Of a stretch of DNA of 64,000 bases, positions 1,315-56,149 are shown piece by piece; positions within the stretch are counted from its first letter, which is position 1; each line of letters begins with the position of its first letter. The notes below the pieces were generated by a model. That model was not told the DNA's origin. It did no database searches and was given only the letters and a program-made list of their open reading frames with translations. This DNA is from Deroplatys truncata (taxonomy: Eukaryota > Arthropoda > Insecta > Mantodea > Mantidae), in NCBI GenBank assembly GCA_030765065.1, contig CM060990.1, positions 456,590,321-456,654,320 on the forward strand, given 5' to 3'. The position numbers and the translations under genes are program-made.

Positions 1315-2180
1315 AGTAGAAATAAAAGGTATGTTCTGGCGCAAGGGAAGATGCCGACAATCGATAAGGTTCTTTGTTCTACGCCGACAAGCCCGCCCCC
1401 TCCCTTTGAGGGCTCACATGCCGCCAGGTCTCGTGTCGTTAGGCCCCGCCCCCTCTCGCTTTGTGTGCTTACCTAATGCCGACAGTGTCTGTGCCGACAG
1501 GTCCTAACCCCTCCCCCCGTGCGTTCTACTGTGGCGTCCTGACTTCAGGGAATTGTTTTATTGAGGCCTGCCGCCCCTCGGCAAATTAATTAGGTAATGT
1601 TCGTCAAACATTTTTTTATGACTACTAATGCACGCATATCTAAGGCTCCTCGAGCAACTAAGTTTTTTGAATAATGAATTGTTGACTCGAGTGTGAGTAT
1701 AAGTAGTCTGCTCACGGGAACAGTCTGTAATGTAATGAAAACACTGCAGCCTTCTTCTATTTGGGGAAAGCGCTTGTCCATTAGCTGGCCATGTTAGACG
1801 CTTTCACCACATTAATAGACTTTTAAGTTTGCATTCCGGATCTGTTTACGTACATTAGCGAACAATAACCTACTTCTGCATGGTGGTAACGGTGACCTAC
1901 ATTAGCTGACCACGTTAGACGCTTTCACCACATTAGCGAACAATGTCAGTAATTGTTTTCCTAAGTGCTCTGCCCAACACTCAACACTTCAGATCTTAGC
2001 GATGGAAATGATATAAAAAGCAGCAGCTTCTCCAATGAGTTCCAAGTTGACCAGGATGGCCAGGATCGAATCCTACGAGTGATTACAAATTCAGCTTCTA
2101 ATAACTCACAGACTAATTACGATAAAGACGTCAAATAAAGTTTATTACATTAATGTCATTAGATAGTTTCTTGTGAATGT
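1315..2180. repeat. E1 left terminal block
   Basis: Outer part of the long inverted repeat, mirrored at about 25160-26036. A GC-rich core (about 1336-1570, with GCCCGCCCCCTCCC) is followed by AT-rich DNA. A short motif, TTAGACGCTTTCACCACATT, occurs at about 1795 and again at about 1915, and both copies are mirrored in the right arm near 25420-25560. No coding potential is recognised; the 63-codon frame at 1590-1781 on the minus strand overlaps these repeats. Confidence 0.75.
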
Positions 2181-3900
2181 ATATTTGGGTACATGGTGTC
2201 CAGGGTTCGAATACCGATAAAATGTAATTTAATTATAAATTTAATAACTCCTAAACTAATTAAGATAAAGACACCAAATAAACTTTATTGCATTTATGTT
2301 ATTAGGTAGTATCTTGTGGATGTACACTTGGGTACCTGGCATTCTGGGTTCAATCCTTAATTTTTTAAATCGTCATTATCTCAGAAACTAAGAGAGGTAG
2401 AGGAGTGAACCAAAGCATGATTGATAGCTCCTATGATGGGTAATTAATACTGTATATAATTTTCAATCAGTTGTCCTTATTTCGAATCCCGATCTTTCAA
2501 TCACTTACTTATTTTTCTCTATACTCTAGAATATATCACTTAGATTGATGCTGTAACTGCATACAGCACCTTTAAACATATCAAACTAATATTGTAAATA
2601 ATTTTGTTTCTGGTATCCAGGGTTCGAATACGGATAAAATGTATTTTAGTTATAAATTTAATAACTTCTAAACTAATTAAGATAAAGACGCCAAATAAAC
2701 TTCATTGCCTTTATGTTATTAGGTAGTATCTTGTGGATGTTTAGTTAGATACCTGACGTTCTGGGTTCGATCCTAATGTTTAAATCGTCATTATCTCAGA
2801 AACTAAGAGAGGTAGAGGAGTGAACCAAAGCATGACTGATAGCCCCTATGATGGGTAATTAATACTGTATATAATTTTCAATCAGTTGTCCTTATTTCGA
2901 ATCCCGATCTTTCAATCACTTACTTATTTTTTCTCTATACTCTAGAATATGTCACTTAGATTGATGCTGTAACTGCATACAGCACCTTTAAACATATCAA
3001 ACTAATATTGTAAATAATTTTGTTTCTGGTATACAGGGTTCGAATACGGATAAAATGTAATTTAGTTATAAATTTAATAACTTCTAAACTAATTAAGATA
3101 AAGACGCCAAATAAACTTCATTGCCTTTATGTTATTAGGTAGTATCTTGTGTATGTCTAATTAGATACCTGACGTTCTGGGTTCGATCCTAATTTTTAAA
3201 TCGTCATTATCTCAGAAACTAAGAGAGGTAGAGGAGTGAACCAAAGCATGATTGATAGCTCCTATGATGGGTAATTAATACCGTATATAATTTTCAATCA
3301 GTTGTCCTTATTTCGAATCCCGATCTTTCAATCACTTACTTATTTTTTCTCTATACTCTAGAATATATCACTTAGATTGATGCTGTAACTGCATACAGCA
3401 CCTTTAAACATATCAAACTAATATTCTAAATAATTTTGTTTCTGGTGTCCAGGGTTCGAATACCGATAAAATGTAATTTAATTATAAATTTAATAACTCC
3501 TAAACTAATTAAGATAAAGACGCCAAATAAACTTTATTGCGTTTATGTTATTAGATAGTATCTTGTGGATGTGTAATTAGATACCTGACGTTCTGGGTTC
3601 GATCCTAATGTTTAAATCGTCATTATCTCAGAAACTAAGAGAGTTAGAGGAGTGGACCAAAGCACGATTGATAAGTTCTATACTGGGTGATTAATGCTGT
3701 ATATAATTGCCAATCAGTTGTGCTTGATTCGATTCCTCATCTTTTAATGACCTCCTTAATTTTCCTCTGTACACTAGAATATATCACTTAGATCGATGGT
3801 GTACCTGCATACAGCTTTGTTTAACATGTTGAGCTAATATCATAAATTATTTTGTTCAGGGTGTTCTGGGTTCGAATACCGATTCAATGAAATTTATTTA
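2180..3900. repeat. 416-bp tandem repeat, about 4 units (left arm)
   Basis: The landmark GGTGTCCAGGGTTCGAATA or a close variant recurs at about 2195, 2611, 3027, 3443 and (weaker) 3861, giving a period of 416 bp. Each unit has three GGTTCGA-like sites: CAGGGTTCGAATA, CTGGGTTCGATCC and TTTCGAATCCCGATC. These resemble the pol III B box (GGTTCGANTCC). Units in the middle are nearly identical and the edge units are diverged, as expected for unequal exchange. The mirrored array is at about 23470-25160. Confidence 0.9.
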
Positions 3901-4720
3901 CAAATTTAATAACGCGTAATCTAATTTAGATAGACATGTCAAGGTAAACGCAAAGAGAGTACCTAGTCCTTACATATCGTTATCATGACAAATATTACTT
4001 TAAAGTACTCAGATCGATTCCCGAAGGGATGATTTCATATATCTTCAAGGCTAGGGATCAAATCAGGTTCTAATAAAGATTAAATGCTTGATGCTGATGT
4101 GGGGGAGCTAAAATACATTTATTAAAAGTATTACCCGGTTCGATTTAGAAGCTTAGAATCTGTGCAACTATGGAAAGATTGCTTTACTCGTGATTGTAGT
4201 TAAATGTAATGGGCTTTCTGTGAGAAGATGGAAAGGAAGAATTGAAAAGGGAATGAAAACATGAGATAATTAAGTAAATAAGGGGAAAATCTTCTCGTTA
4301 CCTTTTAAGCTTTTACTTTAAGTATTGTGATAATACAGCTGGAATTAACCTTGGTACAATAGGTGGGGGTGGTGGTAGGCTTTGAATTTGAAATATATGT
4401 CTGAATGAGCGTGGGAGAATGCTTCTCTTGCTGGTGTGACAGCATAAGCAGGTAGTTATGAGATGAGTTTAAACGTGTTTGATGCTGTCAGACATCATGT
4501 CTCTAGGTGTGACGTCATAAACATCATGCTTTAGGGCGTGAGGTTATATGGCTGAGATTAATACACGTTGAGTGATCATATACAGCTGGTTATGGAGCGA
4601 GTTTATGATTGATCTAAAAGGTTCGTGCTCCCTCTATAAATATGTTATAGGGGAAAGGATGCTCTCCTGAAACATTAGGTCTCTAGACAGAAATTGTTCA
4701 CAGAGACGGAGACGTCAGGA
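3900..4720. other. E1 left arm spacer, no gene
   Basis: Mirror of about 22620-23470. It includes TTCGTGCTCCCTCTATAAATA (about 4625), a GGTGGGGGTGGTGG run (about 4362), and CATCATGTCTCTAGGTGTGACG near 4493. The block around the last motif also recurs in E2 near 63230. I see no coding frame. Confidence 0.7.
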
Positions 4721-5036
4721 TGGATGGGTGCATCTTATATATGAGAGAGGTAGGGGAATATGAGGAGAAGCGCTAGACTAGTCAGGAATATCTGAATGAC
4801 AGAGTATACGTCTATATGGGAAAAGATAGGGAAAACGAAGGTAGGTGCTAGGTTGAGAGAGTCTTCAAGGAGGAAAATGCATTTATATGAGAGCGCTAGG
4901 GCATACGAGGAGAGATGCTAGTCTAGACATGGTTTGAGGAGTAGAGTATACGTTTATATGGGAGAAATATGGAAAACGGGAGAGATACAAGGATAGACAA
5001 GGTTGAAGGAGGAGAAATGTAGGTTTATACTGTAAT
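4720..5036. repeat. Purine-rich minisatellite, about 70-80 bp unit (left arm)
   Basis: Diverged repeats share TTTATATGGGAGA, AGGGAAAACGAAGG, TGCTAGNNTAGACA and AAGGAGGAAAATGC. The plus strand is strongly purine-rich. The mirrored, pyrimidine-rich copy is at about 22030-22620, and a longer version with well over a dozen units occurs in E2 at 56150-57420. Confidence 0.8.
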
Positions 5037-5190
5037 ATAGAGAGTAATTCGATTATAAAACTTTTCTCATCCAGCGTTACAACACTTTTATATACTTATT
5101 TTCTAAACCTTACAAACTTTATATATGTTAAACACTAGTGCGCGAGACGAAGAGGGACAAACTGTATATCGGTTTACAGTGAAGTATACG
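5037..5190. repeat. Conserved Polinton subterminal block (copy 1)
   Basis: A block starting TAGAGAGTAATTCGATTATA and including CAACACTTTTATATAC and ACAAACTGTATATCGGTTTA. It recurs in reverse orientation at about 21900-22035 and in forward orientation at 58390-58545 (E2). It is the best-conserved sequence shared by the three arms and marks the transition from minisatellite to inner arm. Confidence 0.8.
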
Positions 5191-5224
5191 TCCTAACCTA
5201 TTCCCACCTTGTTTGTTCTGGATC

Positions 5225-5390
5225 TTTTCATTCCTACCATCATCTAACGTAACAAGACGTAACACAACGTAACATAACAGCATGACAAGACGTCATACTA
5301 AGTAACATAACCACGCAACATCACGTGACATCTCGTAACCAGAAACGTTACGTGAAAGCACCTATGTAACCAAGTAACAAAACGTAAGAA
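5225..5390. repeat. Degenerate GTAAC-rich short repeats
   Basis: Irregular repeats of ACGTAACA-type words, for example AACGTAACAAGACGTAACAC. They lie at the position that in E2 (58620-59075) holds a much larger array of the same words. The 21-bp satellite unit of E1 (…CTATGTAACAAC…) also carries the GTAAC word. Confidence 0.6.
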
Positions 5391-5399
5391 CTACACTCT

Positions 5400-6100
5400 A
5401 TGTGAAGAGTCGCTCACTTTGTAGGACTACAGGCGATTATGAAAATGAAGACGATATAACACAGAAATACCATAAATGTAGAGTTCTTAAATTCTGCAAG
5501 TGTAATAAAGCTACTTCCAAGTGCACTGTTTGTAAGAAAATGCACAAAGAAACCTGATTATAAATGTGTCAATTGTGTAGAGTATGAACTAGCTAAAATT
5601 GCTGTAAACGTGAATAATTCAATTTTTTTCTATGCAATTAAAACTAAGTAAACTCCCTCATTTGCTTTCTCTTGTTTGGGTTTTATGGTTTCAATGAAAT
5701 TTATTTATTTTTTAATAATTGATATTATTTGTGTTTTGTTGCAGAATTCACAATTCAGCATTTTAACTGGCATATAAATCATGTAAAAACATGAAAATAT
5801 TCTAATTGAATACAAATATAAATTTGAAATAATGATGCAGAATGTTAATGTTATATGGTAGGGGTCAAAATGGTCTTCTGGATGTTAGAAAGGGTAGGGA
5901 AAGGTCGGGCTGTCCTAGCGTTAATTGATAAATTAGAAAACTAGCAGTTCAGGGATTAACAAAGGCTTGAATCAATTCATATCTAAGAAACAGAACACAA
6001 TGTATTGAGATAAATTACATAAATAAGAAAAAATGAAACAATGGAAAAAACATAACACTTTACAAAAAGTAATGCAGACAACATTTATTTTATAAACATT
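5400..6100. other. Unique left-arm segment with a cysteine-rich coding relic
   Basis: This is part of the 1.7-kb segment present only in the left arm. On the plus strand, about 5470-5625 reads as a cysteine-rich stretch containing CKCNKATSKCTVCKK and then, after a frame change, YKCVNCVEYELAK, with stops between. This suggests a degenerate zinc-binding fragment, but I cannot assign a family. The rest (5640-6080) is AT-rich and empty. A short T-rich tract ending GTTTTGTTGCAG (about 5730-5743) looks like a splice acceptor but has no supporting exon. Confidence 0.4.
6084..6089 (-). terminator. Possible polyadenylation signal AATAAA
   Basis: TTTATT on the plus strand reads AATAAA on the minus strand, about 20 bp beyond the stop of the small frame at 6107-6310. 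It would suit a transcript running leftward from the zinc-finger ORF. AATAAA is frequent in AT-rich DNA, so this is weak. Confidence 0.35.
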
Positions 6101-6106
6101 ATGCTA

Positions 6107-6310
6107 TTACATTCCTTCACAAAAAAACATACATATTTCCCAAAGACAAAGGTGATAGTCTAGACATTCTAAACACCCAGTTATATAATCATATACATCA
6201 CACAGAAAGAGACCTGCATTATCAGTAAAAAAACTAAACATCTCAACAATGTCTGGGTGATGTATTTTATAAGTACACGTTTTTGATATTTCAAAGTTCC
6301 TGTTAACCAT
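6107..6310 (-). CDS. Small hypothetical protein, 67 aa
   Basis: An open frame of 67 codons starting MVNRNFEISK lies 34 bp downstream of the 155-codon ORF on the same strand. It is rich in aromatic and cysteine residues (…DYITGCLECLDYHLC…), which might indicate a metal-binding or membrane-associated peptide, but no motif is recognised. An alternative is that it is the diverged 3' region of the upstream gene's transcript. No counterpart exists in the right arm. Confidence 0.25.
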   Translation of the reverse strand: MVNRNFEISKTCTYKIHHPDIVEMFSFFTDNAGLFLCDVYDYITGCLECLDYHLCLWEICMFFCEGM

Positions 6311-6344
6311 GGCCGTAATTGATTAACACAATTTCTCGATCCTG

Positions 6345-6812
6345 TCATGCTATAACTTTAGAAGCTTTCAGCTTACTTATAATTTCCTCAATCTCTTGTG
6401 TGTGACTATTATTACCAGCGTCCCTCGACGCAATTAGTAACCTCAATATATTTACTAGTCTATTCGGATTTTCAAGCTTAGATATCACTGAATCGTCATC
6501 ATATGAAGATTTCATATTCTCGTAACTTCCGATGTATCCAGATTTTTCACCAACAGTAGTCTCCAGTGAAGGACAGAGGCTTGATCCGGTATAACATCCC
6601 CCTCTATACATCGTCGGATCTTCGAGTGTAGGGGAGAGAGTCGATTCGGTATAACATGTTGCTCTATGAAGCTTAAACCTTGACAAAGAACGATTCTTAA
6701 AAACCCGCCCGCATATACAACATCTAATAACGCGTTTTCCTCCATGTGTAATGTATGAAAAATTGTTCTTCTCATTCGTTAGTTGCACAGATTTTCTCGG
6801 GCAGTAGCTCAT
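6345..6812 (-). CDS. Zinc-finger-like protein, 155 aa, unique to the left arm of E1
   Basis: An intact frame from ATG (MSYCPRKSV) to stop. Residues about 29-52 contain CCICGRVFKNRSLSRFKLH followed by RATC, a CxxC…HxxxC arrangement close to a C2HC or C2H2 finger. The middle (about 55-105) has two related short stretches, CYTESTLSPTLE and CYTGSSLCPSLE, an internal duplication. The C-terminal part (about 115-155) is predicted helical, with RLVNILRLLIASRDAGNNS then EIEEIISKLKASK. Small proteins pairing a finger with such a helical tail occur in Polinton-like elements, but this comparison is from memory of general patterns and is not proven. It is the only clean frame of this size in E1 outside satellite DNA. 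DNA binding at the arms is an inference. There is no copy in the right arm or in E2. Confidence 0.55.
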   Translation of the reverse strand: MSYCPRKSVQLTNEKNNFSYITHGGKRVIRCCICGRVFKNRSLSRFKLHRATCYTESTLSPTLEDPTMYRGGCYTGSSLCPSLETTVGEKSGYIGSYENMKSSYDDDSVISKLENPNRLVNILRLLIASRDAGNNSHTQEIEEIISKLKASKVIA

Positions 6813-6899
6813 TCTAAAACTAAAAGAAATTAAATGAATACGTGAATGCTAACGCTCGAAGGAATTAAAAGCGAATGAATGAATTCATAACACGCAACT

Positions 6900-7361
6900 A
6901 TGTATATATCCAGGATGAGGACGACGGAGGGAATTGCGATCTATGCATAGCATTGGGAAAGGATACTCTCTTGAAACATTAGTCATCTAGACAACTATTG
7001 TTCACGGAGCCCGTAGACGTCAGGTTGAATGGTACAGACCTAATGTTCAAATCTTTAAGGGCACGGACCCCGCCTTTTGCCTGTCATGTATACTAAACCA
7101 TCCTAACAGCGTAACATTACGTTACAACGACACGTAACCAGAACATGGCGAGTGCGAACATGGAAAAAAGGATGCTCTCTGGGAACATTCGTGAAAAAAG
7201 GATGCTCTCTGTAAACACTAGTCATCCGCACAACGGGTTGTCCCTAACATTTCCAGATTTCGGGTCGTTCAACATCGTGACGCGCCCCTGTCATCTACAT
7301 TTCGACGAAATTTTACCTCCTGAATTAAAGTTTGGTGATCTGTATAGACCTGTACAACATG
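6900..7361. repeat. Inner arm block, mirrored at about 21330-21905
   Basis: Shared with the right arm in reverse complement, for example GACGGAGGGAATTGCGATC, TCATCTAGACAACTATTG, CCTTTTGCCTGTCATGTATA and TTACCTCCTGAATTAAAGTT. A frame at 7145-7405 begins ATGGCGAGTGCG and has a partner in the right arm (21361-21615 minus). However, it contains an internal duplication (MEKRMLSGNIREKRMLS) and runs into the satellite, so coding is doubtful. The repeated GGATGCTCTCTG words suggest small tandem duplications. Confidence 0.6.
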
Positions 7362-10300
7362 CATTACGCTATGTAACAGACTCATCACGCTATGTAACAA
7401 CCTGATCACGCTATGTAACAACCTGATCACGCTATGTAACAACATGATCACGCTATGTAACAACCTGATCACGCTATGTAACAACATGATCACGCTATGT
7501 AACAACATGATCACGCTATGTAACAACCTGATCACGCTATGTAACAACATGATCACGCTATGTAACAACATGATCACGCTATGTAACAACCTGATCACGC
7601 TATGTAACAACCTTATCACGCTATGTAACAACATGATCACACTATGTAACAACCCGATCACGCTATGTAACAACCTGATCACGGTATGTAACAACATGAT
7701 CACGCTATGTAACAACCTGATCACGCTATGTAACAACCTCATCACGCTATGTAACAACATGATCACGCTATGTAACAACATGATCACGCTATGTAACAAA
7801 CTGATCACGCTATGTAACAACATGATCACGCTATGTAACAACCTGATCACGCTATGTAACAACATGATCACGCTATGTAACAACATGATCACGCTATGTA
7901 ACAACATGATCACGCTATGTAACAACCTGAGCACGCTATGTAACAACATGATCACGCTATGTAACAACATGATCACGCTATGTAACAACCTGATCACGCT
8001 ATGTAACAAGCTGATCACGCTATGTAACAACATGATCACGCTATGTAACAACCTGATCACGCTATGTAACAACCTGATCACGCTATGTAACAACATGATC
8101 ACGCTATGTAACAACCTGATCAGACTATGTAACAACATGATCACGCTATGTAACAACATGATCACGCTATGTAACAACATGATCACGCTATGTAACAACC
8201 TGATCACGCTATGTAACAACTGATCACGCTATGTAACAACCTGATCACGCTATGTAACAACCTGATCACGCTATGTAACAAGCTGATCGCGCTATGTAAC
8301 AACATGATCGCGCTATGTAACAACCTGATCGCGCTATGTAACAACCTGATCACGCCATGTAACAACCTGAGCACGCTATGTAACAACATGATCACGCTAT
8401 GTAACAACATGATCACGCTATGTAACAACCTGATCACGCTATGTAACAACCCGATCACGCTCTGTAACAACCTGATCACGGTATGTAACAACATGATCAC
8501 GCTATGTAACAACCTGATCACGCTATGTAACAACCTCATCACGCTATGTAACAACATGATCACGCTATGTAACAACATGATCACGCTATGTAACAACAAG
8601 ATCACGCTATGTAACAACATGATCACGCTATGTAACAACCTGATCACGCTATGTAACAAGCTGATCACGCTATGTAACAACATGATCACGCTATGTAACA
8701 ACCTGATCACGCTATGTAACAACCTGATCACGCTATGTAACAACATGATCACGCTATGTAACAATCTGATCAGACTATGTAACAACATGATCACGCTATG
8801 TAACAACATGATCACGCTATGTAACAACATGATCACGCTATGTAACAACCTGATCACGCTATGTAACAACTGATCACGCTATGTAACAACCTGATCACGC
8901 TATGTAACAACCTGATCACGCTATGTAACAAGCTGATCGCGCTATGTAACAACATGATCGCGCTATGTAACAACCTGATCGCGCTATGTAACAACCTGAT
9001 CACGCCATGTAACAACCTGAGCACGCTATGTAACAACATGATCACGCTATGTAACAACATGATCACGCTATGTAACAACCTGATCACGCTATGTAACAAG
9101 CTGATCACGCTATGTAACAACCTGATCACGCTATGTAACAACATGATCACGCTATGTAACAACCTGATCACGCTATGTAACAAGCTGATCACGCTATGTA
9201 ACAAGCTGATCACGCTATGTAACAACCTGATCACGCTATGTAACAACCTGATCACGCTATGTAACGACATGATCACGCTATGTAACAACCTGATCACGCT
9301 ATGTAACAACATGATCACGCTATGTAACAACATGATCACGCTATGTAACAACATGATCACGCTATGTAACAACATGATCACGCTATGTAACAGCATGATT
9401 ACGCTATGTAAGAACCTGATCACGCTATGTAACAACTGATCACGCTATGTAACAACCTGATTACGCTATGTAACAACCTGATCACGCTATGTAACAAGCT
9501 GATCGCGCTATGTAACAACATGATCGCGCTATGTAACAACCTGATCGCGCTATGTAACAACCTGATCACGCTATGTAACAACATGATCACGCTATGTAAC
9601 AACATGATCACGCCATGTATCAACATGATCACGCCATGTAACAACATGATCACGCTATGTAACAACATGATCACGCCATGTAACAACATGATCACTCTAT
9701 GTAACAACATGATCACGCTATGTAACAATCTGATCACTCTATGTAACAATATGATCACGCTATGTAACAACCTGATCACGCTATGTAACAACAAGATCAC
9801 GCTATGTAACAACCTGATCACGCTATGTAACAACATGATCACGCTATGTAACAACATGATCACGCTATGTAACAACCTGATCACGCTATGTAACAAACTG
9901 ATCACGCTATGTAACAAACTGATCACGCAATGTAGCAACCTGATCACGCTATGTAACAACATGATCACGCTATGTAACAACCTGATCACGCTATGTAACA
10001 ACCTGATCACGCTATATAACAACATGTTCACGCTATGTAACAACCTGATCACGCTATGTAACAACATGATCACGCTATGTAACAACCCGATCAAGCTATG
10101 CAACATGATCACGCTATGTAACAACATGATCACGCTATGTAACAACATGATCACGCTATGTAACAACATGATTACGCTATGTAACAACATGATCACGCCA
10201 TGTAACAACATGATCACGCTATGTAACAACCTGATCACTCTATGTAACAACATGATCACGCAATGTAACAACATGATCACTCTATGTAACAACATGATCA

Positions 10301-13300
10301 CGCTATGTAACAATCTGATCACTCTATGTAACAACCTGATCACGCTATGTAACAACCTGATCACGCTATGTAACAACATGATCACGCTATGTAACAACCT
10401 AATCACGTTATGTAACATGATCACGCTATGTAACAACATGATCACGCTATGTAACAACATGATCACGCTATGTAACAACCTGATCACGCTATGTAACAAC
10501 ATGATCACGCTATGTAACAAACTGATCAGCTATGTAACAACCTGATCACGGTATGTAACAACATGATCACGCTATGTAACAACCTGATCACGCTATGTAA
10601 CAACGTGTTCACGCTATGTAACAACATGTTCACGCTATGTAACTACCTGATCACGCTATGTAACAACATGATCACGCTATGTAACAACCCGATCACGCTA
10701 TGTAACAACATGATCACGCTATGAAATAACATGATCACGCTATGTAAGAACATGATCACGCTATGTAACAACACGATCACGCTATGTAACAACATGATCA
10801 CGCTATGTAACAACCTGATCACGCTATGTTACAACATGATCACGCTATGTAACAACCTGATCACGCTATGTAACAACATAATCACGCTATGTAACAACCT
10901 GTTCACGCTATGTGGAAACATGATCACGCTATGAAACAACATGATCACGCTATGTAACAACATGATCACGCTATGTAACAACATGATCACGCTATGTAAC
11001 AACCTGATCACGCTATGTAACAAACTGATCACGCTATGTAAAAAACTGATCATGCAATGTAACAACCTGATCACGCTATGTAACAACCTGATCACGCTAT
11101 GTAACAAGCTGATCGCGCTATGTAACAACATGATCACGCTATGTAACAACCTGATCACGCTATGTAACAAGCTGATCACGCTATGTAACAACATGATCAC
11201 GCTATGTAACAACCTGATCACGCTATGTAACAACCTGATCACGCTATGTAACAACATGATCACGCTATGTAACAACCTGATCAGACTATGTAACAACATG
11301 ATCACGCTATGTAACAACATGATCACGCTATGTAACAACATGATCACGCTATGTAACAACCTGATCACGCTATGTAACAACTGATCACGCTATGTAACAA
11401 CCTGATCACGCTATGTAACAACCTGATCACGCTATGTAACAAGCTGATCGCGCTATGTAACAACATGATCGCGCTATGTAACAACCTGATCGCGCTATGT
11501 AACAACCTGATCACGCCATGTAACAACCTGAGCACGCTATGTAACAACATGATCACGCTATGTAACAACATGATCACGCTATGTAACAACCTGATCACGC
11601 TATGTAACAACCCGATCACGCTATGTAACAACCTGATCACGGTATGTAACAACATGATCACGCTATGTAACAACCTGATCACGCTATGTAACAACCTCAT
11701 CACGCTATGTAACAACATGATCACGCTATGTAACAACATGATCACGCTATGTAACAACAAGATCACGCTATGTAACAACATGATCACGCTATGTAACAAC
11801 CTGATCACGCTATGTAACAAGCTGATCACGCTATGTAACAACATGATCACGCTATGTAACAACCTGATCACGCTATGTAACAACCTGATCACGCTATGTA
11901 ACAACATGATCACGCTATGTAACAATCTGATCAGACTATGTAACAACATGATCACGCTATGTAACAACATGATCACGCTATGTAACAACATGATCACGCT
12001 ATGTAACAACCTGATCACGCTATGTAACAACTGATCACGCTATGTAACAACCTGATCACGCTATGTAACAACCTGATCACGCTATGTAACAAGCTGATCG
12101 CGCTATGTAACAACATGATCGCGCTATGTAACAACCTGATCGCGCTATGTAACAACCTGATCACGCCATGTAACAACCTGAGCACGCTATGTAACAACAT
12201 GATCACGCTATGTAACAACATGATCACGCTATGTAACAACCTGATTACGCTATGTAACAAGCTGATCACGCTATGTAACAACCTGATCACGCTATGTAAC
12301 AACATGATCACGCTATGTAACAACCTGATCACGCTATGTAACAAGCTGATCACGCTATGTAACAACCTGATCACGCTATGTAACAACCTGATCACGCTAT
12401 GTAACGACATGATCACGCTATGTAACAACCTGATCACGCTATGTAACAACATGATCACGCTATGTAACAACATGATCACGCTATGTAACAACATGATCAC
12501 GCTATGTAACAACATGATCACGCTATGTAACAACATGATTACGCTATGTAAGAACCTGATCACGCTATGTAACAACTGATCACGCTATGTAACAACCTGA
12601 TTACGCTATGTAACAACCTGATCACGCTATGTAACAAGCTGATCGCGCTATGTAACAACATGATCGCGCTATGTAACAACCTGATCGCGCTATGTAACAA
12701 CCTGATCACGCTATGTAACATGATCACGCTATGTAACAACATGATCACGCTATGTAACAACATGATCACGCTATGTAACAACATGATCACGCCATGTATC
12801 AACATGATCACGCCATGTAACAACATGATCACGCTATGTAACAACATGATCACGCCATGTAACAACATGATCACTCTATGTAACAACATGATCACGCTAT
12901 GTAACAATCTGATCACTCTATGTAACAATATGATCACGCTATGTAACAACCTGATCACGCTATGTAACAACAAGATCACGCTATGTAACAACCTGATCAC
13001 GCTATGTAACAACATGATCACGCTATGTAACAACATGATCACGCTATGTAACAACCTGATCACGCTATGTAACAAACTGATCACGCTATGTAACAAACTG
13101 ATCACGCAATGTAGCAACCTGATCACGCTATGTAACAACATGATCACGCTATGTAACAACCTGATCACTCTATGTAACAACCTGATCACGCTATATAACA
13201 ACATGTTCACGCTATGTAACAACCTGATCACGCTATGTAACAACATGATCACGCTATGTAACAACCCGATCACGCTATGCAACATGATCACGCTATGTAA

Positions 13301-15321: not shown

Positions 15322-15339
15322 ATAGGGAGGACCATTTAA
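15322..15339. other. Left half of the palindrome apex, with TTAA
   Basis: Immediately after the last satellite unit comes TAGGGAGGACCATTTAA. The right array is preceded by TTAAATGGTGCTCCCTA (18737-18753). Joined at TTAA the two halves give a near-perfect dyad with one mismatch pair and no spacer, so the arms of E1 originally met here. Confidence 0.85.
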
Positions 15340-15665
15340 GTTGAGGCTATACAATATATCCAAAACTAAGCGTTGTAGAAAGAAATGGCTTTAATAAAAC
15401 TTGCTTGATATTATGGCGAAAGTAAATGCCGCTAGTCGTGTTTTGTTTGGAGGACGTTGTGATGGTCATTTCAGGGTCTTTTTAAATGGGACCCTAATTG
15501 TAGGTTCCCATTTAAAAAAAATAAATTGACCCAAAATGACCCTCATAACGTCCTCTAAACAAAACACGGCTAGCGGCATTTACTTTCGCCATAATATCAA
15601 GCACGTTTTATTAAAGCCATTTCTTTCTACAACGCTTAGTTTTGGATATATTGTATAGCCTCAAC
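15340..15665. mobile_element. Foldback MITE, 326 bp, flanked by TTAA
   Basis: The element begins GTTGAGGCTATACAATATAT and ends with its reverse complement. Arms of about 150 bp pair almost perfectly around a short loop near 15491-15514 (GGACCCTAATTGTAGGTTCCC region). TTAA lies at both ends (15336-15339 and 15666-15669). It has no coding capacity. TTAA duplication fits the piggyBac, Kolobok or Sola3 groups. Its ends differ from those of the adjacent 3-kb element, so that element is not obviously its driver. Confidence 0.85.
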
Positions 15666-15669
15666 TTAA

Positions 15670-18736: not shown

Positions 18737-18754
18737 TTAAATGGTGCTCCCTAT
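18737..18754. other. Right half of the palindrome apex
   Basis: TTAAATGGTGCTCCCTAT, the mirror of 15322-15339. It is followed directly by the inverted satellite. Confidence 0.85.
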
Positions 18755-21318
18755 TTACATAGCGTGAACACGTTGTTACATAGCGTGATCAGTTTGTTAC
18801 ATAGCGTGATCATGTTGTTACATAGCGTGATCATGTTGTTACATAGCGTGATCATGTTGCTACATAGCGTGATCAGGTTGTTACATAGCGTGATCATGTT
18901 ACATATGGTGAAAAGGTTGTTACATAGCGTGATCATGTTGTTACATAGCGTGATCATGTTGTTACATAGCGTGATCATGTTGTAACATAGCGTGATCAGG
19001 TTGTTACATAGCGTGTTCATGTTGTTACATAGCGTGATCGTGTTTGTTACATAGCGTGATCGTGTTCTTACATAGCGTGATCATGTTGTTTCATAGCGTG
19101 ATCATGTTGTTACATAGTGTGATCGGGTTGTTACATAGCGTGATCATGTTGTTACATAGCGTGATCAGGTTGTTACATAGCGTGAACATGTTGTTACATA
19201 GCGTGAACATGTTGTTACATAGCGTGATCAGGTTGTTACATAGCGTGATCATGTTGTTACATAGCGTGATCAGGTTGTTACATAGCGTGATCATGTTGTT
19301 ACATACCGTGATCAGGTTGTTACATAGCGTGATCATGTTGTTTCATAGCGTGATCATGTTGTTACATAGCGTGATCCGGTTGTTACATAGCGTGATCATG
19401 TTGTTACATAGCGTGATCAGGTTGTTACATAGCGTGATCATGTTACATAGCGTGATCATGTTGTTACATAGCGTGATCAGGTTGTTACATAGCGTGATCA
19501 TGTTGTTACATAGAGTGATCATGTTGTTACATAGCGTGATCATGTTACATAGCGTGATCAGGTTGTTACATAGCGTGATCATGTTGTTACATAGCGTGAT
19601 CAGGTTGTTACATAGCGTGATCATGTTGTTACATATAGTGATCAGATTGTTACATAGCGTGATCATGTTGTTACATAGAGTGATCATGTTGTTACATTGC
19701 ATGATCATGTTGTTACATAGAGTGATCAGGTTGTTACATAGCGTGATCATGTTGTTACATGGCGTGATCATGTTGTTACATAGCGTGATCAGGTTGTTAC
19801 ATAGCGTAATCATGTTTTTACATAGAGTGATCATGTTGTTACATAGCGTGATCATGTTTTTACATAGCGTGATCGGGTTGTTACATAGCGTGATCATGTT
19901 GTTACATAGCGTGATCAGGTTGTTACATAGCGTGAACATGTTGTTACATAGCGTGATCAGGTTGTTACATAGCGTGATCAGGTTGTTACATAGCGTGATC
20001 ATGTTGTTACATAGCGTATTCAGGTTGTTACATTGCGTGATCAGTTTGTTACATAGCGTGAACAGTTTGTTACATAGCGTGATCAGGTTGTTACATAGCG
20101 TGATCATGTTGTTACATAGCGTGATCATGTTGTTACATAGCGTGATCATGTTGTTACATAGCGTGATCATGTTGTTACATAGCGTGATCAGGTTGTTACA
20201 TAGCGTGATCTTGTTTTTACATAGCGTGATCAGGTTGTTACATAGCGTGATCATGTTGTTACATAGAGTAATCAGATTGTTACATAGCGTGATCATGTTG
20301 TTACATAGAGTGATCATGTTGTTACATGGCGTGATCATGTTGTTACATAGAGTGATCATGTTGTTACATGGCGTGATCATGTTGATACATGGCGTGATCA
20401 TGTTGTTACATAGCGTGATCATGTTGTTACATAGTGTGATCATGTTGTTACATAGCGTGATCAGGTTGTTACATAGCGTAATCATGTAGTTACATAGCGT
20501 GATCATGTTGTTACATAGCGTGATCAGGTTGTTACATAGCGCGATCATGTTGTTACATAGCGCGATCATGTTGTTACATAGCGTGATCAGCTTGTTACAT
20601 AGCGTGATCAGGTTGTCACACAGCGTAATCAGGTTGTTACATAGCGTGATCAGCTGTTACATAGCGTGATCAGGTTGTTACATAGCGTAATCATGTTGTT
20701 ACATAGCGTGCTCATGTTGTTACATAGCGTGATCAGGTTGTTACATAGCGTGATCATGTTGTTACATAGCGTGATCATGTTGTTACATAGCGTGATCAGG
20801 TTGTTACATAGCGTGATCATGTTGTTACATAGCGTGATCAGGTTGTTACATAGCGTGATCAGGTTGTTACATAGCGTGATCATGTTGTTACATAGCGTGA
20901 TCAGCTTGTTACATAGCGTGATCAGGTTGTTACATAGCGTGATCATGTTGTTACATAGCGTGATCATGTTGTTACATAGTGTACTCAGGTTGTTACATAG
21001 CGTGATCATGTTGTTACATAGCCTGATCATGTTGTTACATAGCGTGATCAGGTTGTTACATAGTGTGATCATGTTGTTACATAGCGTGATCATGTTGTTA
21101 CATAGCGTGATCATGTTGTTACATAGCGTGATCATGTTGTTACATAGCGTGCTCAGGTTGTTACATAGCGTGATCATGTTGTTACATAGCGTGATCAGGT
21201 TGTTACATAGCGTGATCATGTTGTTACATAGCGTGATCATGTTGTTACATAGCGTGATCAGGTTGTTACATAGCGTGATCATGTTGTTACATAGCGTGAT
21301 GAGACTGTTACATAGGGT
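18755..21318 (-). repeat. 21-bp satellite array 2, about 120 units, inverted
   Basis: The same unit as array 1 but reading CATGTTGTTACATAGCGTGAT on the plus strand. It shares minor variants with array 1 (CATAGAGTG, GCGCGATC, GTGAACATG), and the region nearest the apex mirrors the end of array 1. The array is one third as long as its partner. Long frames on both strands are artefacts of the 21-bp period. Confidence 0.97.
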
Positions 21319-21905
21319 AATGCATGTTGTACAGGTCTATACAGATCACCAAACTTTAATTCAGAGTAACAGATCGTTGACATGAAGATGGTAGAGGCAT
21401 TCCACTAGCTGGAACGATTCAGGAGCTGGAAACGCTAGGGGCACGCAGCGTAATGCAAGTTGTGCAGTTCTATACAGAGCACCAAACTTTAATTCAGGAG
21501 GTAAAATTTCGTTGAAATGTAGATGACAGGAGCGCGTCACGATGATGAACGGTCCGAAATCTGGAAATGTTAGGGACAATCCGTTGTGTACATGACTAGT
21601 GTTCCCAGAGAGCATCCTTTTTCACGAATGTTCCCAGAGAGCATCCTTTTTTCCATGCTCGCACTCGCCATGTTCTGGTTGCGTGTCGTTGTAACGTAAT
21701 GTTACGCTGTTAGGATGGTTTAGTATACATGACAGGCAAAAGGCGGGGGCCCGTACCCTTAAAGATTTGAACCTGAGGTCTGTCCCATTCAACCTGACGT
21801 CTACGGGCTCCGTGAACAATAGTTGTCTAGATGACTAATGTTTCAAGAGCGTATCCTTTCCCCCTGCTATGCATTGATCGCAATTCCCTCCGTCGTCCTG
21901 ATATA
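21319..21905. repeat. Right inner arm block with a 140-bp internal duplication
   Basis: Mirror of 6900-7361. TACAGATCACCAAACTTTAATTC near 21338 recurs near 21478 as TACAGAGCACCAAACTTTAA, so about 140 bp is duplicated here but not in the left arm. A second small duplication repeats CATCCTTTTTTC near 21612-21655. Minus-strand frames at 21361-21819 follow the block but show no recognisable protein. Confidence 0.6.
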
Positions 21906-22035
21906 CAGTTTGTCCCTCTCCGTTTCGCGCACTAGTGTTTAACATATATAAAGTTTGTAAGGTTTAGAAAATAAGTATATAAAAGTGTTGTAATGCTGGA
22001 TGAGGAAAGTTTTGTAATCGAATTACTCTCTATAT
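21900..22035. repeat. Conserved Polinton subterminal block (copy 2, inverted)
   Basis: Reverse complement of 5037-5190: ATACAGTTTGTCCCTCTCCG, GTATATAAAAGTGTTGTAA and AATCGAATTACTCTCTATA. The left-arm unique segment (about 5180-6900) is missing at this junction. Confidence 0.8.
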
Positions 22036-22620
22036 TACCGTATAAACCTACATTCCTACTCCTTCAACCACTGTCTACACTTGTATCTCTACCGTTTTCC
22101 ATATATCTCCCATATAAACGTATACTCTACTCCTCAACCCTCTCTAGCCTAGCACCTCTCATCGTATTCCCTAACGCTCTCACATAAATGCATTTTCCTC
22201 CTTGAAGACTCTCTCAACCTAGCACGTACCTTCGTTTTCCTCGTCTCTCCATATAAACGCATACTCTGTCATTCAAGCCTTCCCGCCTAATACCTCTCCT
22301 CGGTTTGCTAGCTCTCTTATATAAAAACGCTATATTCTACCTTCTAGTACCTCTCCTCGTATTCCCTATCTCTTCCGTATAAAGCGTATCCTCTCCTCCT
22401 TCAGCATCAGTCTAGTCTAGCACGTCTCCTTGTATTTCCTTATCTCTCCCGTATAAGCCTATATTCCCGTCCTTCAGCATCTGTCTGGCCTATTATCTGT
22501 ACACGTTTCCCCTATCTTTCCCATATAAACGCATATTCCATACTTAAAACCCTGACTAGCCTAGCACTTCTCCTCATATTCCTCTACCTCTCTCATATAA
22601 GATGCACTCATCCATCCTGA
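22036..22620. repeat. Pyrimidine-rich minisatellite (right arm)
   Basis: Mirror of 4720-5036 and longer. It has repeats of CTCCCATATAAACG, TAGCCTAGCACCTCTCCTCG and TATTCCCTATCTCT at about 70-80 bp spacing. The plus strand is strongly pyrimidine-rich. Confidence 0.8.
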
Positions 22621-23470
22621 CGTCTCCGTCTCTGTGAACAATTTCTGTCTAGAGACCTAATGTTTCAGGAGAGCATCCTTTCGCCTATAACATATTTATA
22701 GAGGGAGCACGAACCTTTTAGATCAATCATAAACTCGCTCCATAACCAGCTGTATATGATCACTCAACGTGTATTAATCTCAGCCATATAATCTCACGCC
22801 CAGAAGCAGGATGTTTATGACGTCACACCTAGAGACATGATGTCTGACAGCATCAAACACGTTTAAACTCGTCTCATAACTACCTGCTTATGCTGTCACA
22901 CCAGCAAGAGAAGCATTCTCCCACGCTCATTCAGACATATATTTCAAATTCAAAGTCTACAGCCACCACCACCACCACCTATTGTACCAAGGTTAATTCC
23001 ATCTGTATTATCACAATACTTAAAGTAAAATCTTAAAAGGTAACGAGAAGATTTTCCTCCTTATTTAGTTAAATGTATGTATATACTACATTATCGCATG
23101 TTTTCATTCCCTTTTCAATTCTTCCTTTCCACCTTCTCACAGAAAGCCCATTACATTTCACCACAATCACTAGAAAAGCAATTTTTCCATAGTTACACAG
23201 ATTCTAAGCTTCTAAATCGAACCGGGTAATACTTTTAATAAATGTATTTTAGCTCCCCCGCATCAGCATCAAGCATTTAATCTTTATTAGACCCTGATAT
23301 GATCCCTAGGCTTGAAGATATATGAAATCACCCCTTTGGGATTCGATCTGAGTACTTTAAAGTAATATTTGTCACGATAACGATATATAAGGACTAGATA
23401 CTCTGTTTGCGTTTACCTTGACATGTCTATCTAAATTAGATTACGCGTTATTAAATTTGTAAATAAATTT
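22621..23470. other. E1 right arm spacer, no gene
   Basis: Mirror of 3900-4720, with TATTTATAGAGGGAGCACGA, ATGACGTCACACCTAGAGAC and a (CCA)n run near 22965. Related sequence occurs in E2 at 63190-63540. No coding frame is recognised. Confidence 0.7.
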
Positions 23471-25160
23471 CATTGAATCAGTATTCGAACCCAGAACACC
23501 AGGAACAAAATAATTTATGATATTGGCTCAACATGTTAAACAAAGCTGTATGCAGGTACATCATCTATCTAAGTGATATATTCTAGTGTACAGAGGAAAA
23601 TTAAGGAAGTCATTAAAAGATGGGGAATCGAATCAAGCACAACTGATTGGCAATTATATACAACATTAATCACCCAGTATAGAACTTATCAATCATGCTT
23701 TGGTCCACTCCTCTGCCGCTCTTAGTTTCTGAGATAATGGTGATTTAAAAATTATGATCGAACACAGAACGTCAGGTATCTAATTACACATCCACAAGAT
23801 ACTACCTAATAACATAAAGGCAATGAAGTTTATTTGTCGTCCTTATCTTAATCAGTTTAGAAGTTATTAAATTTATAATTAAATTACATTTTATCGGTAT
23901 TCGAACCCTGGACACCAGAAACAAAATTATTTAGAATATTAGTTTGATATGTTTAAAGGTGCTGTATGCAGTTACAGCATCAATCTAAGTGATATATTCT
24001 AGAGTATAGAGAAAAAATAAGTGATTGAAAGATCGGGATTCGAAATAAGGACAACTGATTGAAAATTATATACAGTATTAATTACCCATCATAGGAGCTA
24101 TCAATCATGCTTTGGTCAATTCCTCTACCTTTCTTAGTTTCTGAGATAATGACGATTTAAAAATTAGGATCGAACTCAGAACGTCAGGTATCTAATTACA
24201 CATCCACAAGATACTACCTAATAACATAAACGCAATAAAGTTTATTTGGCGTCTTTATCTTAATTAGTTTAGGAGTTATTAAATTTATAATTAAATTACA
24301 TTTTATCGGTATTCGAACCCTGGACACCAGAAACAATATTATTTACAATATTAGTTTGATATGTTTAAAGGTGCTGTATGCAGTTACAGCATCAATCTAA
24401 GTGATATATTCTAGAGTATAGAGAAAAATAAGTAAGTGATTGAAAGATCGGGATTCGAAATAAGGACAACTGATTGAAAATTATATACAGTAGTAATTAA
24501 TCATCATAGGATCTATCAATCATGCTTTGGTCAATTGCTCTACCTCTCTTAGTTTCTGAGATAATGACGATTTAAAAATTAGGATCGAACTCAGAACGTC
24601 AGGTATCTAATTACACATCCACAAGATACTACCTAATAACATAAACGCAATAAAGTTTATTTGGCGTCTTTATCTTAATTAGTTTAGGAGTTATTAAATT
24701 TATAATTAAATTACATTTTATCGGTATTCGAACCCTGGACACCAGAAACAATATTATTTACAATATTAGTTTGATATGTTTAAAGGTGCTGTATGCAGTT
24801 ACAGCATCAATCTAAGTGACATATTCTAGAGTATAGAGAAAAAATAAGTAAGTGATTGAAAGATCGGGATTCGAAATAAGGACAACTGATTGAAAATTAT
24901 ATACAGTATTAATTACCCATCATAGGAGCTATCAATCATGCTTTGGTTCACTCCTCTACCTCTCTTAGTTTCTGAGATAATGACGATTTAAAAAATTAAG
25001 GATTGAACCCAGAACGCTAGGTACCCAAGTATACATCCACAAGATACTAACTAATAACATAAACGCAATAAAGTTTATTTGCTGTCTTTATCTTAATTAG
25101 TTTAGGAGTTATTAAATTTATAATTAAATTACATTTTATCGGTATTCGAACCCTGGACAC
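23470..25160. repeat. 416-bp tandem repeat, about 4 units (right arm)
   Basis: TATTCGAACCCTGGACACC recurs at about 23900, 24310, 24727 and 25145, with a diverged copy at 23484. The spacing is 411-418 bp. This is the mirror image of the left-arm array, and the same B-box-like words occur on the opposite strand. Confidence 0.9.
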
Positions 25161-26036
25161 CATGTACCCGAATATACATTCACAAGAAAGTATCTAATGA
25201 CATTAATGTAATAAACTTTATTTGACGTCTTTATCGTAATTAGTCTCTGAGTTATTAGAAGCTGAATTTGTAATCACTCCTAGAATTCGATCCCGGCCAT
25301 CCTGGTCAACTTGGAACTCATTGGAGAAGCTGCTGCTTTTTATATCATTTCCATCGCTAAATGCTGAAGTGGTGAGAGTTGTGCAGAGCACTTAGGAAAA
25401 CAATTACTGACATTGTTCGCTAATGTGGTGAAAGCGTCTAACGTGGTCAGCTAATGTAGGTCACCGTTACCACCATGCAGAAGTAGGTTGTTCGCTAATG
25501 CACGTAAACAGATCCGGAATGCAAACTTAAAAGTCTATTAATGTGGTGAAAACGTCTAACATGTCCAGCTAATGGACAAGCGCTTTCCCCAGATAGAAGA
25601 AGGCTGCAGTGTTTTCATTACATTACAGACTGTTCCCGTGAGCAGACTACTTATACTCACGCTCGAGTCAACAATTAATTAATCAAAAAACTTAATTGCT
25701 CGAGGAGCCTTAGATATGCGTGCATTAGTAGTCATAAAAAATGTTTGACGAACATTACCTAATTAATTTGCCGAGGGGCGGCAGGCCTCGATAAAACAAT
25801 TCCCTCAAGTCAGGACGCCACAGTAGAACGCATGGGGGAGGGGGTAGGACCTGTTAGCACAGACACTGTCAGCATTAGGTAAGCACACAAAGCGAGAGGG
25901 GGCGGGGCCTAACGACACGAGACCTGGCGGCATGTAAGCCCTCAAAGGGAGGGGGCGGGCTTGTCGGCGTAGAACAAAGAACCTTAGCGATTGTCGGCAT
26001 CTTCCTTTGCGCCAGAACCGGCTTAATATTTCTACT
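25161..26036. repeat. E1 right terminal block
   Basis: Mirror of 1315-2180. It ends GCGCCAGAA … TATTTCTACT directly before AATAGG. The GC-rich core (GGGAGGGGGCGGGC near 25950) is retained. The frame at 25805-26308 on the minus strand crosses the element boundary into the flanking relic and is chimeric. Confidence 0.75.
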
Positions 26037-26042
26037 AATAGG
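26037..26042. repeat. 6-bp target site duplication, right (AATAGG)
   Basis: A perfect copy of 1309-1314, directly after the right end of E1. Confidence 0.8.
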
Positions 26043-56145: not shown

Positions 56146-56149
56146 GGGG

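What the first reader, a model, noticed from the sequence alone, without database searches (positions are those of the whole stretch)
1315..26036. A 24.7-kb foldback Polinton derivative with no Polinton core genes
Seen: perfect AATAGG duplications, matching AG-starting ends, and inverted similarity extending through both arms to the centre. Known: Polintons/Maverick elements give 6-bp duplications and have AG termini, but their inverted repeats usually span hundreds of bases to about 1 kb around a 15-20 kb gene core. Inferred: here the core is gone and the element is practically all arm. This is a giant non-autonomous, MITE-like Polinton, a form I do not recall being described.
Basis: partly seen in the sequence, partly recalled or inferred. 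Interest (0 to 1): 0.85.

Follow-up and report, generated by a model that had tools for sequence, protein, structure and literature searches.

The report
Giant foldback parasites of virus-like Polintons
This stretch is one copy of a large family of mobile DNA that is almost wholly two mirror-image arms, made by duplicating one end of a virus-like Polinton transposon, and it appears to live off the gene-bearing Polintons of the same genome, which it outnumbers.

Summary
1315-26036 (24,722 bp) is flanked by perfect AATAGG duplications, begins AGTAG and ends CTACT; 19,852 bases lie in inverted matches. Seven fetched paralogous empty sites carry one uninterrupted AATAGG-like site. The same ends bound gene-bearing 16.4-16.7-kb Polintons here (PolB, integrase, ATPase, capsid) and other foldbacks. 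Of 45 element pairs along 253 Mb of one contig, 35 are foldbacks (median 17.3 kb), 7 integrase-bearing Polintons (16.7 kb), 3 unclassified, none both.

New: all 16 arms of the 8 foldbacks read carry subterminal sequence found only at the PolB-side Polinton end (about 60 bp in 12 arms, up to 670 bp in others). The element is thus an inverted duplication of one Polinton end, not merely a Polinton without core. Sister arms are usually each other's closest relatives; the window copy is a hybrid of two foldback subfamilies. Corrections: an unrelated Mutator-like transposon sits at the centre, and the left arm keeps 116 bp of a Polinton gene.

Best reading: a non-autonomous, snapback-like Polinton derivative copied and integrated in trans. 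Trans-mobilisation is well supported; snapback replication and packaging are inferred. Ten literature searches listed no description.

The parts
1309..1314 (.). left target-site duplication AATAGG
   Evidence: one AATAGG in 5 of 7 fetched paralogous empty sites, AACAGG and AATATG in the other two
26037..26042 (.). right target-site duplication AATAGG
1315..2044 (+). left outer end, homologous to the PolB-side end of gene-bearing Polintons, running about 60 bp past the part shared by both Polinton ends
   Evidence: 94.7% to L022 right end; side-specific stretch 44 of 49 matches
25312..26036 (-). right outer end, homologous to the same PolB-side Polinton end
   Evidence: 95.1% to L022 right end; side-specific stretch 48 of 53 matches
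2194..3932 (+). 416-bp tandem repeat, 4.2 copies, left arm
23428..25162 (-). 415-bp tandem repeat, 4.2 copies, right arm (inverted)
4738..5343 (+). arm interior, collinear with the terminal region of a second, older long-TIR Polinton at 56132-68336
   Evidence: 13 of 13 HSPs on the same strand
5171..6914 (+). left-arm-only region; the corresponding region is in both arms of L023/24 and in neither arm of L029/30
6342..6457 (-). 116-bp fragment (3' end) of the Polinton gene that lies just upstream of integrase, 86% identical, collinear with the Polinton
6345..6848 (-). 167-aa open frame ending in the Polinton gene fragment; open in 8 arm copies compared, pooled pN/pS 0.50; only a sub-threshold Pfam hit, no PHROGs hit
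7370..15321 (+). 21-bp satellite array, left arm
18755..21314 (-). 21-bp satellite array, right arm (inverted)
15322..15669 (.). palindromic hairpin tip at the axis (about 362 bp with 18737-18754), seen in 5 of 8 foldbacks read (window, L023/24, L025/26, L029/30, L038/39)
   Evidence: inside 29 of 42 arm-mark pairs on contig C1
15670..18736 (-). nested, unrelated transposon with PF20700 Mutator-like transposase frames, inverted ends of about 18 bp with one mismatch (by eye), TTAA on both sides
18737..18754 (.). remainder of the hairpin tip after the nested insertion
21315..23427 (-). right arm interior, mostly closest to the L029/30 subfamily (the left arm is closest to L023/24)
56132..64000 (.). 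second, older Polinton with long inverted arms (runs to 68336, outside the window); PolB relic 59411-61396 on the minus strand; not part of the foldback itself

Best explanation
It is one copy of a high-copy, non-autonomous Polinton family whose members are giant foldbacks. Shown: the element carries the ends of the resident gene-bearing Polintons, makes the same 6-bp duplications, and both its arms start from the same PolB-side Polinton end. Inferred with high confidence: it is moved by the Polinton machinery acting in trans (terminal-protein-primed PolB copying from the two identical ends, then the retroviral-type integrase joining them to a staggered 6-bp cut). Inferred with moderate confidence: it arose as a snapback product, when a polymerase copying inward from the PolB-side end switched to its own strand or to the displaced strand and copied back out. 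That would give a molecule with two copies of the same replication origin and no need for the other end. Repeated self-templating of this kind, or mismatch repair of the hairpin, would keep sister arms nearly identical from copy to copy. The arms also hold a 415-bp repeat, a 21-bp satellite and often a palindromic tip. The satellite can vary freely, yet length centres near that of the Polinton, which would fit a limit set by a capsid. The window copy is a hybrid of two foldback subfamilies and took a TTAA transposon at its axis.
For: The 39 full-length rows other than the window itself, of 40 scored from 3,663 candidates, are 94-97% identical over the end. Perfect 6-bp duplications in 9 of 11 copies read at both ends (10 fetched plus the window), one mismatch in the other 2. 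Three of the 10 fetched copies are gene-bearing Polintons, 7 are foldbacks. The two Polinton ends share sequence up to 962-967 of the PolB-side end (coordinates); all 16 arms of 8 foldbacks go on along the PolB side, to 1027 in 12 arms, 1098 in L029/30 and 1641 in L036/37. The PolB-side-only stretch 975-1027 matches every arm at 44 of 49 to 52 of 53 positions, and the three capsid-side ends over no more than 14 bases. A 116-bp Polinton gene piece lies further in, collinear. 35 of 45 TIR-mark pairs on contig C1 are foldbacks, 7 carry the integrase mark, 0 carry both; medians 17,272 and 16,676 bp. The arm mark has 712 forward and 712 reverse exact places, control 0; of the first 100, 90 form 45 convergent pairs. 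Integrase mark 222+199 and PolB mark 117+77 places; in the first 100 listed of each the smallest gap is 88 kb. Sister arms are nearest neighbours in 6 of 6 measurable non-window foldbacks at the end segment, 0.2-1.8%. 38 of 38 non-self hits of the joined flanks span the junction. A second, older Polinton here has inverted arms that include a PolB C-terminal piece on both sides.
Against: No movement, replication or particle was observed. In 12 of 16 arms the PolB-side-only part is short, about 60 bp. Only about 730 bp per end (about 1.3 kb of Polinton end in L036/37) and 116 bp match the young Polintons; most arm interior has another or unknown origin. No first-generation snapback (coding genes in both arms of the young family) was seen among the first 100 PolB or integrase places. 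Two weak matches to the capsid-side end lie below the cut: L029 1111-1191 (79%, 87 bp) and L036 3162-3351 (69%, 190 bp). Sister-arm likeness could also come from gene conversion, and for L031/32 the margin is thin (1.2% against 1.4%). L031/32 and L033 lack the two-sided satellite. Foldback lengths spread far more (10.2-24.1 kb) than those of the seven Polintons (16.6-17.0 kb), against a strict packaging limit. Kapitonov and Jurka 2006 is not held.
Confidence: 0.8

Rival explanations
1. TIR growth by gene conversion: an ordinary Polinton copy had its TIRs lengthened step by step by conversion or ectopic recombination in the chromosome until the arms met, as proposed for Galileo.
For: PMC3573991 proposes this for Galileo and says that expansion of inverted repeats has been reported for Polintons (passages seen). 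The older element at 56132-68336 has arms of 3.0-3.7 kb with a core still present, which could be a halfway stage. Subfamilies share arm modules in different combinations.
Against: Exact satellite variants mirror each other across the axis at 34 of 46 sites in 10 clusters, clear in 4 of 10, which asks for long conversion tracts. The window copy kept two unlike arms, so conversion in place is not general. Median length is close to the Polinton's, which conversion does not predict.
Confidence: 0.25
2. An unrelated foldback transposon (MULE/FB-NOF-like or P/Galileo-like) whose transposase is the Mutator-like gene at the centre.
For: PF20700 Mutator-like transposase frames lie at the axis; Drosophila foldbacks also have long internally repetitive arms (PMC3573991, passages).
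Against: The Mutator-like piece belongs to a separate dispersed family (40 of 439 candidates scored, all 97-100%, no convergent close pairs among them by eye), is flanked by TTAA and is absent from the axis of L023, L026, L030, L036 and L038. The duplication is 6 bp and the ends are those of Polintons.
Confidence: 0.02
3. Assembly artefact: two inverted copies joined wrongly, or an inverted duplicate made by library or assembly error.
For: The two arms are unlike (3-7% by segment) and the window copy is longer than all 35 foldbacks; no raw reads were available.
Against: AATAGG matches on both sides and 38 of 38 non-self hits run through the joined flanks. Many other foldbacks have the same convergent geometry, and those read have their own duplications. 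The arms differ by several percent, which a self-inversion artefact would not give.
Confidence: 0.02
4. Two Polintons inserted head to head and recombined once by chance in the chromosome; the product then spread.
For: It would also give two copies of one end and loss of the rest; composite arm interior shows that recombination between lineages happened.
Against: It does not explain near-identity of sister arms in each copy nor a second lineage with the same kind of inverted end duplication.
Confidence: 0.12

Closest known systems
Polinton/Maverick elements (polintoviruses)
   Same: 6-bp duplications, AGT-type ends, TIR shared with resident gene-bearing copies, similar median length. PMC8097293 (passages) gives (AG)3 or (AGT)2 ends, 6-bp duplications, 12.7-24.6 kb with mean 16.9 kb and TIRs of 46-1,447 bp for intact vertebrate elements; PMC10045372 (passages) gives 6 bp for Polinton.
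   Different: No PolB, integrase, ATPase or capsid gene found in the element; practically all arm; both arms from one end; outnumbers the gene-bearing form where counted.
Foldback elements of Drosophila: FB (recalled) and Galileo (PMC3573991, passages)
   Same: Long arms with internal tandem repeats; copies made only of arms; chimeric copies.
   Different: Other superfamilies with other duplications (Galileo 7 bp in the paper; FB 9 bp, recalled). Galileo TIRs are about 0.3-1.2 kb in the paper. Its chimeric copies have unlike flanking 7-mers; the hybrid here has matching flanks.
Snapback subgenomes of adeno-associated virus (PMC8235507, passages)
   Same: Self-complementary genomes made from one moiety of a linear viral genome, copied with helper functions; the dimer is a head-to-head inverted duplication.
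   Different: AAV is a parvovirus with hairpin ends and the subgenomes are found in particles; here they are chromosomal insertions and particles are unproven.
MITEs
   Same: Non-autonomous, borrowed machinery, outnumber their helpers.
   Different: MITEs are usually under about 600 bp (recalled); these are about 17 kb.

Membership tests
Polinton/Maverick (autonomous) | 6-bp target-site duplication | tested here: met
   Perfect in 9 of 11 copies, one mismatch in 2; window AATAGG; empty sites
Polinton/Maverick (autonomous) | AG/AGT-type termini and TIR shared with bona fide Polintons of the genome | tested here: met
   AGTAG...CTACT; window ends 94.7% and 95.1% identical over about 730 bp to a gene-bearing copy
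Polinton/Maverick (autonomous) | genes for PolB, integrase, ATPase, capsid proteins | tested here: not met
   27 frames of at least 120 aa touch 1315-26036; 22 are satellite, the other 5 were scanned with Pfam and none is such a gene. tblastx of the left arm against L021/L022 shows, beyond the outer end, only the 116-bp piece
Non-autonomous Polinton derivative | shares ends and duplications with resident gene-bearing elements | tested here: met
Non-autonomous Polinton derivative | moved by the Polinton integrase and copied by its PolB | not testable with these tools
   inferred from ends and duplications only
Foldback (FB/Galileo type) | long, internally repetitive inverted arms filling the element | tested here: met
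Foldback (FB/Galileo type) | 9-bp (FB, recalled) or 7-bp (Galileo) duplication | tested here: not met
   6 bp
MULE / Mutator-like | transposase belonging to the element | tested here: not met
   PF20700 frames lie in a separate nested transposon
Snapback defective genome | inverted duplication of one end of the parent genome | tested here: met
   16 of 16 arms carry PolB-side-only sequence; about 60 bp of it in 12 of them
Snapback defective genome | replicated and packaged with a helper virus | not testable with these tools
   median length near the Polinton's is compatible, not proof; the spread is wide

The most novel reading that the evidence does not exclude
These foldbacks are vertically inherited snapback defective genomes of a polintovirus. 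They are copied by protein priming from two identical origins, perhaps packaged in polintovirus capsids (hence a median length near 17 kb although the satellite could take any length), integrated by the viral integrase, and they may have interfered with their helper, which they outnumber about five to one along the stretch counted. An animal genome would then hold hundreds of fossil defective interfering genomes of a protein-primed DNA virus, and indirect evidence that its Polintons made particles.
Probability: 0.3. Interest if true: 0.92.

Novelty: new variant of a known kind. Interest (0 to 1): 0.82.

Why it matters
Non-autonomous forms are common among DNA transposons (recalled), but ten full-text searches listed no paper whose title or abstract start describes a high-copy, giant foldback form for Polintons; Repbase and most subscription papers could not be searched, and some listings were capped (for example 30 of 125 papers; 12 of 93). 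Here such a form outnumbers the gene-bearing one 35 to 7 in a 253-Mb stretch. The one-end inverted duplication is what a snapback error of a protein-primed genome would give, so the genome offers a replicated record of how such linear genomes go wrong. Particles of Mavericks have not been observed (PMC8097293, abstract start); if foldbacks whose length is free to vary still centre on Polinton length, that is a testable hint of packaging. Long, near-perfect palindromes in hundreds of places are also a puzzle for genome stability and a possible source of double-stranded RNA.

Tried and rejected
Rejected: the Mutator-like frames as the foldback's own transposase (nested, dispersed, TTAA-flanked). 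Rejected: simple core deletion with both original ends kept (all 16 arms carry PolB-side sequence). Rejected: artefact. The 362-bp palindromic tip was first taken for a common MITE; its 1,027 exact marks form on contig C1 38 loci, of which 29 lie inside a convergent arm pair, 4 near an unpaired arm mark and 5 in neither, so it is mainly a part of the foldbacks.

Inconclusive: selection on the 167-aa frame. The first table is invalid for the pairs with the window because of a frame slip of mine; the corrected pooled pN/pS is 0.50 over 28 pairs of 8 sequences, which does not separate weak constraint from inheritance of a once-constrained piece. The penton-like and protease-like labels of Polinton frames come from their order and look (recalled); Pfam gave nothing for them, PHROGs nothing, and a search of solved structures with the penton-like frame only chance-level hits. 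A search for young snapbacks with coding genes in both arms found none in the first 100 places of the integrase or PolB marks; later places are not listed. Of the 15 element pairs seen, 11 were read from both ends (window plus 10 fetched); C12 was classified as a Polinton from loci at both ends, C22 as a foldback and C16:670 as a probable Polinton from one end each (the first try had the minus-strand loci the wrong way round); C10:228779801-228795148 stayed unclassified. L002 matches both the PolB-side end (92%) and the L036 foldback (98% over a shorter part) and was left out of the counts. Counts from exact marks are lower bounds, and some arms hold two arm marks. In the outer two of eight segments neither window arm is closest to L023/24 or L029/30, and in the first 600 bp both are closest to L038.


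Full report
WHAT WAS CLAIMED AND WHAT IS THERE. All of this is in the sequence. AATAGG stands at 1309-1314 and 26037-26042, the element begins AGTAGAAAT and ends ATTTCTACT. The arms align from the ends inward at 88.8-93.4% in the main pieces; 19,852 of 24,722 bases lie in an inverted match, against 1,304 in an equal control stretch of the window. The larger parts without a mirror partner are 5171-6914 (left arm only), 15678-18735 (a nested transposon) and 68 bases at 22276-22343.

ANATOMY. From each end inward: about 730 bp homologous to Polinton ends; a 415-bp tandem repeat in four copies (2194-3932 and 23428-25162); arm interior; a 21-bp satellite (7370-15321 and, inverted, 18755-21314); and a palindromic tip of about 362 bp at the axis. 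The tip is cut by a 3,067-bp transposon at 15670-18736 with TTAA on both sides, near-identical inverted ends (by eye) and frames matching PF20700, Mutator-like transposase (5.2e-36 and 9.6e-12). A probe from it hits 439 candidate places; the 40 scored are 97-100% identical and dispersed, so it is an independent element that landed here. TTAA would fit the Kolobok or piggyBac superfamilies (recalled, not tested).

A TRUE INSERTION. The window flanks joined with one AATAGG were searched in the same genome. 40 of 1,796 candidates were scored: two are the flanks themselves and all 38 others run through the junction. Seven were fetched; they are continuous and carry one site, AATAGG in five, AACAGG and AATATG in the other two. 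The element therefore went into an old repeat and duplicated six bases.

THE FAMILY. The first 500 bp hit 3,663 candidate places; of the 40 scored, the 39 full rows besides the window are 94-97% identical, and many form convergent pairs. Ten copies were fetched. With the window that makes 11 copies read at both ends; nine have perfect 6-bp duplications and two (L031/32, L029/30) one mismatch. Three of the ten (L021/22, L027/28, L034/35) are gene-bearing Polintons with TIRs of about 620-645 bp and long open frames; frames scored in L021/22 match PolB (PF03175), integrase (PF00665), A32-like ATPase (PF04665) and double-jelly-roll capsid protein (PF21738). The other seven are foldbacks: six with 62-97% of each fetched half in inverted match, and the 5.9-kb L033. 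Ends held in search loci add a C12 Polinton (both ends), a C22 foldback and a probable C16:670 Polinton (one end each) and a lone foldback end, L017. The palindromic tip is present in 5 of the 8 foldbacks read and absent from L036/37, L031/32 and L033; L033 has no satellite and L031/32 has it on one side only.

NUMBERS. Exact marks were counted genome-wide, each with a reversed-pattern control of 0. TIR: 982 forward and 990 reverse. Foldback arm: 712 and 712. Palindromic tip: 523 and 504. Integrase: 222 and 199. PolB: 117 and 77. A 42-base satellite mark: 4,727 and 4,967. Among the first 100 arm marks 45 convergent pairs, 10 unpaired and no other neighbours within 25 kb were seen; among the first 100 integrase and the first 100 PolB marks the smallest gap is 88 kb. 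The first 100 TIR marks, all on contig C1 up to 253.5 Mb, give 45 convergent pairs and 10 unpaired marks. Of the 45, 35 hold foldback marks, 7 hold the integrase mark, 3 hold neither, none holds both. Scaled by length alone that is roughly 600 foldbacks in the 4.29-Gb genome, about 10 Mb (my extrapolation). Foldbacks have a median of 17,272 bp (10.2-24.1 kb), the seven Polintons 16,676 bp (16.6-17.0 kb). On C1 the palindromic tip lies inside an arm pair in 29 of 38 loci, with a median asymmetry of 1.3% of the span.

BOTH ARMS COME FROM ONE END. The Polinton has two ends that differ beyond the TIR: a capsid-side end and a PolB-side end. What both ends share runs to position 919-945 in the main alignment and, as a short further piece, to 962-967 of the PolB-side end. 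All 16 arms of the 8 foldbacks, left and right, go on along the PolB-side end: to 1027 in 12 arms, 1098 in L029/30 and 1641 in L036/37. So the side-specific part is about 60, 130 and 670 bp. The PolB-side-only stretch 975-1027 matches every arm at 44 of 49 to 52 of 53 positions, while the three capsid-side ends match it over at most 14 bases. No arm passes position 949 of the capsid-side end at the cut; two weaker matches to that side, 87 bp at 79% in L029 and 190 bp at 69% in L036, were seen at a looser cut. Further in, a 116-bp piece of the gene just upstream of integrase lies in the right order and orientation in the left arms of the window, L023, L025, L031 and L038 (80 bp in L036). So the element is an inverted duplication of one Polinton end with the body replaced, not just a Polinton with its middle cut out.

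ARMS ARE RENEWED TOGETHER. In the first 600 bp, the two arms of each of the six non-window foldbacks that could be measured are each other's nearest relatives (0.2-1.8%), while arms of different elements differ by 1.4% or more; for L031/32 the margin is small. In the satellite, exact variants mirror each other across the axis at 34 of 46 sites in 10 clusters; 4 of the 10 exceed all 200 random placements, the others do not clearly. The window copy is the exception. In six inner segments its left arm is closest to L023/24, and in five of six its right arm is closest to L029/30; in two outer segments the nearest are other copies. The left-only region 5171-6914 has its counterpart in both arms of L023/24 and in neither of L029/30. 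It is a hybrid of two foldback subfamilies. Its matching duplications mean that it went in as a hybrid or was converted in place; Galileo chimeras have unlike flanks (PMC3573991, passages).

A SECOND CASE NEXT DOOR. At 56132-68336, running out of the window, lies an older Polinton with AGTAG ends, a possible decayed duplication (TAAACA against TATGCA, 4 of 6), a PolB relic at 59411-61396 (tblastx 33-48%) and inverted arms of 3.0-3.7 kb whose aligned pieces are 89-94% identical. A C-terminal piece of PolB is in both arms (59590-59904 minus; 65416-65634 plus), so here too an end has been duplicated in inverse, reaching into a gene while a core is left. The interior of the foldback arms (4738-5343) is collinear with its terminal region (13 of 13 matches on one strand). 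A probe of its end finds 6,643 candidates; some of the 40 scored again form convergent pairs. Arms of the young foldbacks thus combine pieces of two Polinton lineages.

HOW IT MOST LIKELY WORKS. Shown: common ends, common duplication length, one-end origin, high number, sister arms alike. Inferred: PolB of resident Polintons, primed by a terminal protein, copies the foldback from its two identical ends, and the integrase inserts it. Origin by snapback fits best: the fork turns on itself and copies the same end back out, which yields two origins of the same kind. The nearest published parallel that I saw is the snapback subgenomes of adeno-associated virus (PMC8235507, passages). The near-Polinton median length may reflect packaging; PMC8097293 (passages) reads the 10% size spread of Mavericks as a constraint on genome size, but the foldbacks spread more widely. 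I put trans-mobilisation at about 0.9, snapback origin at about 0.5-0.6 and packaging at about 0.3.

KNOWN OR NEW. Ten searches of the held library listed no paper whose title or abstract start describes a foldback or high-copy non-autonomous Polinton; phrases such as 'non-autonomous Polinton' gave no hit. The Galileo paper states that growth of Polinton inverted repeats has been reported, in references I did not read. Kapitonov and Jurka 2006 is not held, and Repbase was not searchable. I therefore call it a new variant of a known kind.

Noticed in passing
window 56132-64000, continuing in L048 to 68336 in window numbering: A second, older Polinton with AGTAG ends, inverted arms of 3.0-3.7 kb and a PolB relic whose C-terminal piece is present in both arms; other copies of its end also occur in convergent pairs 2-22 kb apart (by eye).
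   Followed up: yes
15670-18736: A 3.07-kb TTAA-flanked transposon with PF20700 Mutator-like transposase frames sits in the palindromic tip; 439 candidate places, 40 scored at 97-100%. It may be a young family.
   Followed up: partly
5490-5560: A short stretch that reads like the C-terminal cysteine-rich domain of a piggyBac transposase (recalled, no search made), inside the left-arm-only region.
   Followed up: no
6345-6848: A 167-aa frame with cysteines, open in 8 foldback arm copies, its last 40 or so residues shared with a Polinton protein; it may be a chimeric gene of the foldbacks.
   Followed up: partly
L036:7640-7740: This foldback has no palindromic tip: two satellite units meet head to head at the axis, which may be the older state.
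   Followed up: partly
L033 (5.9 kb): A short foldback that matches the window arm only in the Polinton end and the 415-bp repeat, without satellite.
   Followed up: partly
33062-33562 and 45607-46011: Frames with a weak DUF659 match (below cut-off) and a DUF4817 match, likely relics of other transposons.
   Followed up: no
62698-63035: A 153-bp tandem repeat, 2.2 copies, in the core of the second Polinton.
   Followed up: no
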